Position numbers and translations under genes: made by a program. A stretch of 64,000 nucleotides of DNA, taken from assembly GCA_945878135.1 (NCBI GenBank), contig CAMDUL010000011.1, positions 1 to 64,000 of the forward strand. The letters are read 5' to 3'. The DNA is from Chthoniobacter flavus. Its GTDB lineage: Bacteria > Verrucomicrobiota > Verrucomicrobiia > Chthoniobacterales > JACTMZ01. This document shows positions 60,681 to 64,000 of this stretch, piece after piece (the stretch's first letter is position 1; each line of letters starts with the position of its first letter). The notes beneath the pieces are model-generated. The model saw only the letters and a list, made by a program, of their open reading frames with translations, ran no database searches and was not told the origin of the DNA.

Positions 60681-61562
60681 TCAATGTTTGGGCGCGCGGA
60701 CGGTGGCCGCTTCGAGGTCGTCGCGGCGGCGCTCGACGATGCTGTCGGCGATTTCCATGATCATCTCCTCGAGGAGGAGACGGAGATGGCTGCCGGGCCG
60801 GTAGTCTGCGGGGGCGATGTGCTTGACCCGGTCCGCATGGGCGGTGAGCTGGTAGCTTTTTTTGAAACTGACGCGCGACCGGTCCTCGGGATTGTAGACG
60901 GCGATGGCGCGTCCGCCGGTTTGCTTCATCACGGTGAAGCAGGGGACGTCGGTCGGGCCGTCGCCCACGTAGATCATGTTGGTGAAGGGGACGGGCCTCA
61001 GTTCGGGCGGCATGTGGTCGTTGACGTCCTGCGCGAGGTCGAGCATGCCCTTGTTGATGCGGAAGAGGAACTGCGTCTTCTGCGTGTGGCTGATGACACG
61101 TTTGGGAAAGGTGATGTGTCCGTCGTTGTCCTCGGCGTATTCGCAGCCGAAAATTTTGCGCACGTAAGGTTCGATGCGGCTGCCGAGGATGAGTTCTTTG
61201 AGGCCGGAACTGACGATGTAGTGTTCCACATTGATGCCGTGGGCCCGGTGCTCGGCGGTGAGGAGTCCGTTTTTGAATTCCTCGAACATCTCCGGGATGC
61301 CGGGGAAGAAGCTGAGTTGGGCGCCGAGTTCGCGGAGTTGGGCGTTGGTCGGACGGTCGGGTTCGAGGTAGTCGAGGAGGGCCTTCATGTAGGCCAGTTC
61401 GTTCTCGAAGCCGTGCTTCTGGACCAACTCCCCGCAGCGTTGCCAGAACTGCTTCCCGTCGATCCCGAAGTGCGGAAAAATCGCCTCCTCCTGCATGTAA
61501 TTCGGGCTGAGGGTCTGGTCGTAGTCGTAAATTATGGCGATGGTGCTCTGCGGAACGGACAT
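60681..61562 (-). CDS. HAD-superfamily phosphatase
   Basis: 293 residues. The nucleophile motif is IIYDYDQTLSPNYMQ (D-x-D-x-T), then ISSG-like VSSGLKELILGS, a Lys-containing TFPKRVISHTQK and the acidic motif VGDGPTDVPCFTVM. It resembles the phosphoserine-phosphatase branch (haloacid dehalogenase-like). Substrate unknown. Start ATG 61562; it diverges from the exonuclease-ligase gene with a 72-base promoter spacer. Confidence 0.88.
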   Translation of the reverse strand: MSVPQSTIAIIYDYDQTLSPNYMQEEAIFPHFGIDGKQFWQRCGELVQKHGFENELAYMKALLDYLEPDRPTNAQLRELGAQLSFFPGIPEMFEEFKNGLLTAEHRAHGINVEHYIVSSGLKELILGSRIEPYVRKIFGCEYAEDNDGHITFPKRVISHTQKTQFLFRINKGMLDLAQDVNDHMPPELRPVPFTNMIYVGDGPTDVPCFTVMKQTGGRAIAVYNPEDRSRVSFKKSYQLTAHADRVKHIAPADYRPGSHLRLLLEEMIMEIADSIVERRRDDLEAATVRAPKH

Positions 61563-61634
61563 AACGCGGTCGAAGGTGCATGGTATCCGCATGCGCACGG
61601 GGTTCCAGAAGGTTTCTTCGACGGGAGGGCGGCC

Positions 61635-64000
61635 ATGATCGAGGTGGTCTATCGCGGCGGGGTGCTGGTTCCGTCCATCGACCTGTGGATGGATCCGCGG
61701 GCGCCGCGGGGGTTCGCTTTTGTCTCGCATGCGCACAGCGATCATATCGGCAGGCACCGCGAGACGGTGCTTTCGCCGGGGACGTCGCGGCTGATGCGCG
61801 CGCGGCAGGGGGCGTCGGGGGTGGAGCACGTGCTCGAATTCGGGGAGACGCGGAAGATGCGCGGGGCGGAGTTCACCTTGCTCCCGGCGGGGCATGTCCG
61901 CGGGTCGGCGCAATTGCATTTGCAGGCGGAGGACGGATCGATCCTCTACACCGGAGATTTCAAATTGCGTCCGGGTCTTTCCAGCGAACGCACCGCGTGG
62001 CGTCAGGCCGACACGCTCATCATGGAAACGACCTTCGGCAAGCCGGAATTCGTTTTCCCGCCGACCGCGCAGGTGCTGTCCGGGGTGGTGAAGTTCTGTC
62101 GCGAGGCCCTGGAAGACGGCGAGGTGCCGGTGTTGCTCGGTTACTCCCTGGGCAAAGCGCAGGAAATCATTTGCGCCGTGGCCGCGGCCGGACTCCGCCC
62201 GATGCTCCACGGGGCGGTGGCCAAGCTGACGCGCATTTACCGCGATCTGGTGCCGGGATTTCCCGACTTCGTCCCGTATGAAGCCTCCGAGGTTCCGGGT
62301 CACGTGCTCATCGCCCCGCCCAGCGTGAAAGGATCGCGCATGCTGGCCGGGATCAAAAAGAAGCGCGTGGCCATGCTGACCGGCTGGGCTATGACACCGG
62401 GGGCGGTGCACCGCTATCAGGTGGATGCCGCATTTCCGCTCAGTGACCATGCGGGTTATGACGATCTGCTTGAATACGTGGAACTCGTGCGGCCGAAGCG
62501 CGTGCTGACTCTCCACGGGTATGCGTCGGAGTTCGCCCGCGACCTGCGCGAGCGCGGGATGGAGGCCTGGTCGCTGGTCAGTCCCGACCAACTCGAGTTC
62601 ACCGGGTTCATCGCGCCGGCGACCCCGCGGGTGCGCGGGCAGACGACGGCGGGGGAGGCGCCGGACTCCCCTTTCGGCGCGTTCTGCGCCACGGCCGAGG
62701 CGGTCGGTGCGGCCACCGGGCGCCTGGCCAAAACAAGGATTCTGGCGGACTACCTGCGCGGACTGGATGACGACGATTTGCGCCGCGCGGCAACCTGGTT
62801 GACCGGACAGCCCTTCGGTCCGACCGAGGAACGCAGCGCCCAGACCGGTTGGGCCGTGCTGCGGCGCGCCTTGGGAGCGGCGGCGGGGATCGCCGAAGAC
62901 GAAGTGCGCGCGGTGTCGCGGCGCTGCAACGATTCCGGACTGGCCGCGCGCGAGATCATGGCGGGCCGTGCGCCGGGCACAGCCTTCGATTTGGCCGCGG
63001 TGGCCGGGTTATTCGACGGCTTGGCCGCGGCCCGAGGTCCGGTGAAGAAGCAGGCCTTGCTCGAGGATTTCTTCCGCGCCTGCAGCGCATCCGAGGCGTC
63101 CATCGTGGTGCGTATTCTCACCGGGGATCTGCGTATCGGGCTGAAGGAAGGTTTGCTCGAAGAGGCGATCAGCGCGGCGTTTGCCGCCGAACCGCAGCAA
63201 GTGCGCGAGGCCGGCCTGTTGCTCGGCGACGCGGGGGCGGTGGCCGTGGCGGCGAAGCGCCGGGAACTCGAGCGCGCCGAGTTGCGCATTTTTCATCCGG
63301 TGAAATGCATGCTGGCCGGATCCGAACCGGACGGTGCCGCGGTATGGGACAGGTTGTCCGGCGAGGAGCAGGCGGTGTGGGTGGAGGACAAATACGACGG
63401 TATCCGGGCGCAGGTCCATGTGGCGGACGGGCGGTGTGAGATCTTTTCGCGCGATCTGCGGCGGATCACCGCGCAGTTTCCGGAGATTGCCGCGGCGGCG
63501 GCCAAGTTGCCGGGTTGCCTTGTGCTCGACGGGGAAATCCTGGCGTCGGTGGCCGGGCGCCGTCTGACCTTTTTCGACCTGCAAAAGCGTCTCAACCGCC
63601 GCGAGGCGGACCTCTTTTTGACCGAGGATGTGCCGGTGGAGTTTGTGGCCTTCGATATCCTGTCGCGGGACGGGGTGACTTTGCTGGCGGCGCCGTGGCG
63701 CGAGCGGCGGAAGGTTTTGCAGGGATTGGCGCCGGGGAAACCGGTGTCGGTTGCTCCGGTGACGCGGTTGGAAAGTGCGGAGGCGGTGGAGTCGGAATTC
63801 CGGGCCGCGCGGGCCCGGGGCAACGAGGGTCTGGTCGGCAAGGACCCCGGAAGCACCTACACGCCGGGACGGCGCGGTCTGGCCTGGATCAAATTGAAGA
63901 AGGAATTCGCCACGCTGGACGTCGTGGTGACCGGAGTCGAATACGGCCATGGCCGCCGCCGCGAGGTCCTGAGCGATTACACCTTCGCCGTGCGCGACGG
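61635..64000 (+). CDS. Fused MBL-fold exonuclease and ATP-dependent DNA ligase (3' end beyond window)
   Basis: One reading frame from ATG 61635 with no stop to the window edge (788 codons seen). Residues 1-~325 form a metallo-beta-lactamase-fold exonuclease of the ligase-associated type: SHAHSDH with His32, His34, Asp36, His37; LPAGHVRGSAQLHL; YTGDFKLRPG; METTFGKPEF; GYSLGKAQEII; LTLHGYASEFARDLRERG. After a linker (~325-355) comes an ATP-dependent ligase: N-terminal helical domain (RILADYLRGL, IVVRILTGDLRIGLKEGLL), nucleotidyltransferase with KYDGIR (adenylated Lys586), LVLDGEILA, EGLVGKDPGSTYTPGRRG and WIKLKKEF. The OB domain begins at the edge. Frame was checked across the junction. Confidence 0.93.
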   Translation, partial: MIEVVYRGGVLVPSIDLWMDPRAPRGFAFVSHAHSDHIGRHRETVLSPGTSRLMRARQGASGVEHVLEFGETRKMRGAEFTLLPAGHVRGSAQLHLQAEDGSILYTGDFKLRPGLSSERTAWRQADTLIMETTFGKPEFVFPPTAQVLSGVVKFCREALEDGEVPVLLGYSLGKAQEIICAVAAAGLRPMLHGAVAKLTRIYRDLVPGFPDFVPYEASEVPGHVLIAPPSVKGSRMLAGIKKKRVAMLTGWAMTPGAVHRYQVDAAFPLSDHAGYDDLLEYVELVRPKRVLTLHGYASEFARDLRERGMEAWSLVSPDQLEFTGFIAPATPRVRGQTTAGEAPDSPFGAFCATAEAVGAATGRLAKTRILADYLRGLDDDDLRRAATWLTGQPFGPTEERSAQTGWAVLRRALGAAAGIAEDEVRAVSRRCNDSGLAAREIMAGRAPGTAFDLAAVAGLFDGLAAARGPVKKQALLEDFFRACSASEASIVVRILTGDLRIGLKEGLLEEAISAAFAAEPQQVREAGLLLGDAGAVAVAAKRRELERAELRIFHPVKCMLAGSEPDGAAVWDRLSGEEQAVWVEDKYDGIRAQVHVADGRCEIFSRDLRRITAQFPEIAAAAAKLPGCLVLDGEILASVAGRRLTFFDLQKRLNRREADLFLTEDVPVEFVAFDILSRDGVTLLAAPWRERRKVLQGLAPGKPVSVAPVTRLESAEAVESEFRAARARGNEGLVGKDPGSTYTPGRRGLAWIKLKKEFATLDVVVTGVEYGHGRRREVLSDYTFAVRD

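What the first reader, a model, noticed from the sequence alone, without database searches (positions are those of the whole stretch)
61635..64000. Exonuclease and ATP-dependent DNA ligase fused in one polypeptide
The MBL-fold 'ligase-associated exonuclease' and the bacterial ATP-dependent ligase are normally separate genes of a four-part repair cassette (with an Lhr-type helicase and a manganese-dependent endonuclease). Here they form one continuous frame: exo motifs SHAHSDH at 32-37, ligase Lys586 in KYDGIR, no stop or frameshift at the junction near 62600-62760. Fusion would tie end-processing to sealing and suggests order and stoichiometry in this poorly understood system. The linker keeps the ligase N-terminal helical domain intact.
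Basis: partly seen in the sequence, partly recalled or inferred. Interest (0 to 1): 0.75.

Follow-up and report, generated by a model that had tools for sequence, protein, structure and literature searches.

The report
Exonuclease-ligase fusion, already described
This gene really does join a DNA-trimming enzyme and a DNA-sealing enzyme in one protein, but the same fusion has been reported before and is common in this bacterial group; what is less expected is that the sealing half is often damaged or missing in relatives while the trimming half survives.

Summary
Window 61635-64000 is the first 788 codons of an intact 884-codon gene (stop at contig position 64289): an MBL/beta-CASP exonuclease (residues 1-322), a floppy linker of about 23 residues and a complete LigB-type ATP-dependent ligase. 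Three other assemblies (78-90% identical) keep the same frame, with dN/dS about 0.10-0.15 in both halves. No convincing internal start was seen.

The fusion is not new: PMC10140301 (2023) describes 13 such proteins plus one in Opitutus terrae, and assayed one ligase half. Here it occurs in 35 of 387 genomes of the phylum.

The four-part cassette is not here: no MPE nuclease and no Lhr helicase were found in this genome, and 11 of 35 fusion genomes lack MPE (nine of them also any strong Lhr match). And the ligase half is dispensable: 33 genomes have a related exonuclease alone, and three fusions have a dead or truncated ligase. The ligase halves form one clade while fused and solo exonucleases interleave, so one old fusion with repeated ligase loss fits best.

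Most likely function: a 5'-phosphate-dependent 5'-3' DNA exonuclease tethered to a nick-sealing ligase (activity inferred).

The parts
61635..64000 (+). Exonuclease-ligase fusion gene, 5' 788 codons of 884; continues to the stop at contig position 64289
61623..61629 (+). GGGAGGG, Shine-Dalgarno-like stretch 5 bases before ATG 61635
   Evidence: read; motif judged by eye
61635..62600 (+). MBL/beta-CASP exonuclease half (residues 1-322); metal ligands H32 H34 D36 H37 H87 D108, motif A E131, motif B H272, motif C H294, phosphate-pocket-type Y170 K174 S270
62601..62669 (+). Interdomain linker (residues 323-345), variable in length and sequence among relatives; model residues 320-341 have pLDDT under 50
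62670..63170 (+). Ligase N-terminal DNA-binding domain (PF04675)
63363..63899 (+). Ligase adenylation domain (PF01068) with KYDGIR, K586 (63390-63407)
63957..64000 (+). Start of the ligase OB-fold domain (PF04679, residues 775-867), which ends beyond the window
60681..61562 (-). Divergent neighbour, 293-aa HAD-like phosphatase (name from its DYDQT motif, recalled; no family search run); same neighbour in L100-L102

Best explanation
A bifunctional DNA-repair enzyme. The N-terminal MBL/beta-CASP half is most likely a two-metal, 5'-phosphate-dependent 5'-3' exonuclease of the SNM1A/Apollo kind, which removes damaged or flapped 5' ends and leaves a new 5'-phosphate. The C-terminal half is a complete LigB-type ATP-dependent ligase that seals the nick once a separate polymerase has filled the gap. 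A disordered linker keeps the sealing enzyme at the trimmed site without fixing the geometry. Shown here: the single reading frame, the intact catalytic residues, purifying selection on both halves, and no Lhr or MPE found in this genome. Inferred: the polarity, the DNA (not RNA) substrate, the polymerase step and the repair role. By descent it is most simply one old fusion in this bacterial class; the exonuclease is the lasting core and the ligase half has been lost or inactivated several times.
For: Frame and domains. Same frame and low dN/dS in three other assemblies. All metal-site residues plus motifs A, B and C kept in 35 of 35 fused, 33 of 33 solo and 15 of 15 separate-gene exonucleases compared. 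Nearest solved sequence to the window exo alone is Apollo, E 1.6e-13; an RNA-type chain (PH1404, 5.8e-12) and SNM1A (6.8e-12) follow. The YSLGK stretch aligns identically with Apollo; in PMC4678830 Y182, K186 and S274 of SNM1B hold the ligand that marks the proposed 5'-phosphate pocket, and Tyr there is conserved among the DNA repair enzymes while RNases mostly have Phe (passages). Here Y170 and S270 are invariant in 83 of 83 and K174 in 82 of 83. The ligase half fits archaeal LigI-type ligases over all domains; a homologous ligase half was active with ATP (PMC10140301, passages). Single fused-ligase clade, support 100/100.
Against: Motif C is His (H294) in 83 of 83, as in RNA-type beta-CASP enzymes; SNM1 enzymes have Val there, although V1061H did not change SNM1A's DNA preference according to that paper. 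With the exo model, Foldseek's best matches by E-value are RNA-type (archaeal CPSF/FttA, TTHA0252), with SNM1A first at rank 33 and Apollo at 48; the profile search also ranks CPSF-type chains first. I saw no assay of any such exonuclease half; in PMC10140301 it was insoluble. Repeated absence of the ligase half argues against tight coupling.
Confidence: 0.55

Rival explanations
1. The exonuclease half acts on RNA or RNA-DNA hybrids (for example 5' ribonucleotides or RNA flaps), and the ligase then joins the cleaned DNA end.
For: RNA-type His at motif C in 83 of 83; a match to RMMBL, Pfam's 'RNA specificity domain'; Foldseek and profile searches put RNA-type beta-CASP enzymes first.
Against: Single-sequence search puts Apollo first; DNA-type Tyr170 invariant; fusion to a DNA ligase; SNM1A V1061H kept its DNA preference (PMC4678830, passages).
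Confidence: 0.2
2. The fusion has no mechanistic meaning: two independently acting enzymes share a chain by history, and the exonuclease alone is what selection keeps.
For: 33 genomes with the solo form and 3 with a dead or truncated ligase half; linker unconserved in length and sequence; in one genus (g23) fused and solo forms sit at the same locus.
Against: In one search no genome showed the two halves of this clade as separate genes (G085 is broken by a contig end; that search scored at most two candidates a genome); the ligase half is under purifying selection where compared.
Confidence: 0.2
3. The ligase is also or only made separately from an internal start, or the fusion is a sequencing error.
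For: One in-frame GTG at codon 333.
Against: No Shine-Dalgarno-like stretch before it; both motifs in one frame in 79 of 80 named loci.
Confidence: 0.03

Closest known systems
Metallonuclease-LigB fusions of Dry Valley metagenomes and Opitutus terrae OTER_RS15935 (PMC10140301; Ejaz and Shuman 2018 cited there, not read)
   Same: Same order of parts: N-terminal MBL/RMMBL nuclease, linker, complete LigB ligase; none of the Dry Valley genes lay in the LigB/Lhr/phosphodiesterase setting, as here
   Different: No difference in kind seen. The sequences of that paper were not compared with this one letter by letter
Four-gene LigB cassette: Exo (TIGR04122), ligase (TIGR04120), Lhr (TIGR04121), MPE (TIGR04123)
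   Same: Homologous exonuclease and ligase
   Different: Exo and ligase fused; both below the curated cut-offs (210.5 vs 325 and 277.2 vs 400 bits); no Lhr or MPE found in this genome
SNM1A / Apollo 5'-3' DNA exonucleases
   Same: MBL/beta-CASP fold, metal site, Tyr/Lys/Ser of the proposed phosphate pocket
   Different: Motif C His instead of Val; ligase attached
Human Artemis docked on DNA ligase IV
   Same: A beta-CASP nuclease brought to a LigI-family ligase
   Different: There a peptide of Artemis packs against the first two helices of the ligase (PMC4037875, passages); here the link is covalent. Analogy only

Membership tests
Exonuclease-LigB fusion (PMC10140301 kind) | MBL nuclease with RMMBL N-terminal to the ligase DNA-binding domain in one frame | tested here: met
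Exonuclease-LigB fusion (PMC10140301 kind) | All three ligase domains (A_N, A_M, A_C) with KxDGxR | tested here: met
Exonuclease-LigB fusion (PMC10140301 kind) | ATP-dependent ligase activity | not testable with these tools
   reported for a homologous ligase half only
LigB four-gene cassette | MPE phosphoesterase (TIGR04123) in the genome | tested here: not met
   no match in own genome at E<=0.001; genome 90.7% complete
LigB four-gene cassette | Lhr helicase (TIGR04121 / PF08494) in the genome | tested here: not met
   best 59.2 bits against a cut-off of 850; PF08494 none
TIGR04122 ligase-associated exonuclease (equivalog) | score over the curated cut-off of 325 | tested here: not met
   210.5 bits, 213.7: a relative, not an equivalog
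TIGR04120 cisplatin-response ligase (equivalog) | score over the curated cut-off of 400 | tested here: not met
   277.2 bits; PRK03180 scores higher, 334.8, also under its cut-off of 641
SNM1 nucleases | Val at motif C | tested here: not met
   His294; definition from PMC4678830
SNM1 nucleases | Tyr and Lys of the proposed 5'-phosphate pocket | tested here: met
   Y170, K174 aligned with Apollo YSLGK
SNM1 nucleases | 5'-3' exonuclease activity on 5'-phosphorylated DNA | not testable with these tools
   no assay

The most novel reading that the evidence does not exclude
In this bacterial class the exonuclease is the selected core and the fused ligase is an accessory that has repeatedly been lost or turned into a catalytically dead arm. 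In one genus a lysine-less, OB-less pseudo-ligase is kept, perhaps as a DNA-binding arm (adenylation-domain remnant 66% identical between two species, against 69% for the exo half). The ligase-free exonuclease then works in a pathway without Lhr, MPE or LigB.
Probability: 0.4. Interest if true: 0.5.

Novelty: new member of a known kind. Interest (0 to 1): 0.33.

Why it matters
The role of the LigB/Lhr/Exo/MPE pathway is not known (stated in PMC10140301). The comparison here splits it into two modules in this class: Exo-Lig, and Lhr with MPE, which occur together (the same 24 of 35 fusion genomes have both). It also shows that the Exo persists without the ligase, so the next assay should be on the exonuclease. 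Solo exonucleases of about 330 residues might give the soluble material that the published attempt lacked.

Tried and rejected
Artefact or frameshift: rejected by three other assemblies. Internal ligase start: no support. Cassette just past the window end: rejected; LemA, TPM and MalQ follow. Several fusion events: not favoured, because the 34 fused ligase halves compared form one side of a branch with 100/100 support (L044 was left out of that tree because it has no adenylation domain). Fused exonucleases as one clade with no later loss: rejected, AU p 7.8e-27. Defence system: no PADLOC match. Phage: PHROGs gives only a general ligase family. Plasmids: 54 records match, none over 80% of the query.

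Link of MPE/Lhr with an intact ligase: Fisher p 7e-10 over 68 genomes ignores kinship; with independent pairs it is not significant (6 pairs; on average 2.2 the same way, 0 the other; median p 0.5), so I do not claim it. G215 keeps MPE and Lhr with a truncated ligase, against that link.

Set aside by judgement: 9 of the 16 loci with an Lhr hit (L123, L134, L142, L146, L147, L153, L156, L160, L174) have that hit only inside the fusion gene; I took these as shadow frames of the 1419-codon G018 query frame and did not test that.

Dropped rows: searches covered 80 of the 87 matching genomes (G015, G023, G093, G157, G174, G186 and G267 left out). G186, G093, G128 and G078 were not in the exo tree. 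The root of the exo tree is unsure, so whether the f8 and f16 solo forms ever had a ligase is open.

Full report
What is there. The frame that starts at ATG 61635 runs off the window and stops at contig position 64289, giving 884 residues. Residues 8-314 match the ligase-associated exonuclease model, and 346-512, 577-755 and 775-867 match the three domains of an ATP-dependent ligase. Relatives L100, L101 and L102 come from other assemblies and are 90, 79 and 78% identical. They keep the frame with no stop; dN/dS is 0.10, 0.12 and 0.13 in the exo half and 0.12, 0.15 and 0.15 in the ligase half, and the linker is only 68, 50 and 40% identical. The whole-protein model has mean pLDDT 85, with residues 320-341 under 50, so the picture is two folded enzymes on a flexible tether. 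Solo relatives end within a few residues of where the linker begins.

It is already in print. PMC10140301 (section 16 and passages read) reports 13 fusions of an RMMBL metallonuclease to the N-terminus of LigB in Dry Valley metagenomes, cites Ejaz and Shuman 2018 for the same in Opitutus terrae, and shows that one ligase half works with ATP while the nuclease half was insoluble. Ejaz and Shuman 2018 itself was not held and was not read. The ten paper searches listed no other paper that I could see to be about the fusion; I saw listings only, one search listed 20 of 541, and subscription papers are mostly missing from the library.

How common. Of 387 genomes of the phylum, 87 match at E<=1e-10. 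I sorted these by matched range and open frame: 35 carry the fusion (one, G085, is broken by a contig edge), 33 a solo exonuclease 42-57% identical to this one, 14 a more distant exonuclease and a ligase as separate genes, 3 a distant exonuclease only, 1 a fragment (G128) and 1 only a ligase-like match (G078). None of the 33 solo genomes has a match to the LigB N-terminal domain. In the window's own order one search lists 6 fused, 2 solo and 3 without a match. Of the best 80 named loci, 79 are shown to be fusions and one is cut by a contig edge; their record titles are mostly Verrucomicrobia in general, Chthoniobacterales, Spartobacteria, Opitutaceae or Verrucomicrobiaceae.

Partners. In this genome no MPE match was found, and no Lhr (best 59.2 bits against a cut-off of 850; PF08494 none). 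Among the 35 fusion genomes the same 24 have a near-full-length MPE match (82 bits or more) and an Lhr match of 330 bits or more. The other 11 lack MPE; two of them (G339, G289) have an Lhr match of about 430 bits in a frame of nearly 1480 codons, which I take for a different Lhr, and nine have none at E<=1e-60. None of the 33 solo genomes has a near-full-length MPE; matches of 20-28 bits occur in six, and one (G271) has a partial Lhr-type match of 249 bits. From the coordinates, fusion, Lhr and MPE lie in that order in 6 of the 24 (G277, G099, G088, G143, G010, G018), and the three lie within about 9 kb in another order in G251; elsewhere they are further apart or on other contigs. Of 58 named loci with at least 4 kb downstream, 7 have Lhr and MPE there.

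History. In a tree of 83 exonuclease domains, fused and solo forms make one clade (100/100) apart from the 15 separate-gene forms, but interleave: 7 changes, at least 4 forced by well-supported branches. A single fused clade is rejected (AU p 7.8e-27). In contrast, 34 fused ligase halves form one side of a branch (100/100), with families grouped much as in the exo tree. One old fusion with repeated loss of the ligase half explains both most simply. In genus g23 the fused G260 and the solo G292 and G140 share about 4 kb of upstream DNA plus the exo region, and similarity stops at the exo end; no significant remnant of the adenylation or OB domains was found beside the solo genes (best E 0.02, in G140). 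Intermediate states exist: in G289 and G223 the motif-I lysine is replaced and the OB domain is missing, and in G215 only the DNA-binding domain remains, with no further ligase match in the 5 kb downstream that I held. Between G289 and G223 the remnant adenylation domain is 66% identical, the exo half 69% and the DNA-binding domain 49%, so the adenylation remnant does not look like free decay.

Mechanism. The exo half keeps every metal ligand and motif in all 83 compared. Its nearest solved sequence is Apollo, and its invariant Y170 and S270, with K174 in 82 of 83, match the residues of the proposed 5'-phosphate pocket of SNM1B. Against this, motif C is the RNA-type His, and fold and profile searches rank RNA-type enzymes first. 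I therefore put a 5'-phosphate-dependent DNA exonuclease ahead of an RNA or hybrid nuclease, without calling it settled. A polymerase step between trimming and sealing is inferred, not seen.

Verdict. A real, intact, selected fusion gene of a kind already published. The useful additions are its modular partners and the repeated loss or death of the ligase half.

Noticed in passing
60681-61562 (-): A 293-aa HAD-like gene starts about 70 bases from the fusion gene and diverges from it; the same neighbour was found in L100, L101 and L102 and not in the other 77 named loci, some of which hold little upstream DNA. A shared promoter region is possible.
   Followed up: partly
L041, L042, L186, L187 (genomes G289, G223): Fused pseudo-ligase: motif-I lysine replaced by Arg or Leu, OB domain missing, frame ending at the same place in two species.
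   Followed up: partly
L078 (genome G310): A genome with the same genus code as G289/G223 carries the separate four-gene order exo, ligase, Lhr, MPE.
   Followed up: no
L147, L162, L175: Fusion genes on contigs titled Betaproteobacteria and Akkermansia muciniphila; probably mislabelled bins, not checked.
   Followed up: no
G000:C19:26276-26617: A second, weaker beta-CASP-type match (38.5 bits to TIGR04122) in a 472-codon frame elsewhere in the genome.
   Followed up: no
L156, 2833-3057: MPE-like match shortly after the fusion with no Lhr hit between.
   Followed up: no
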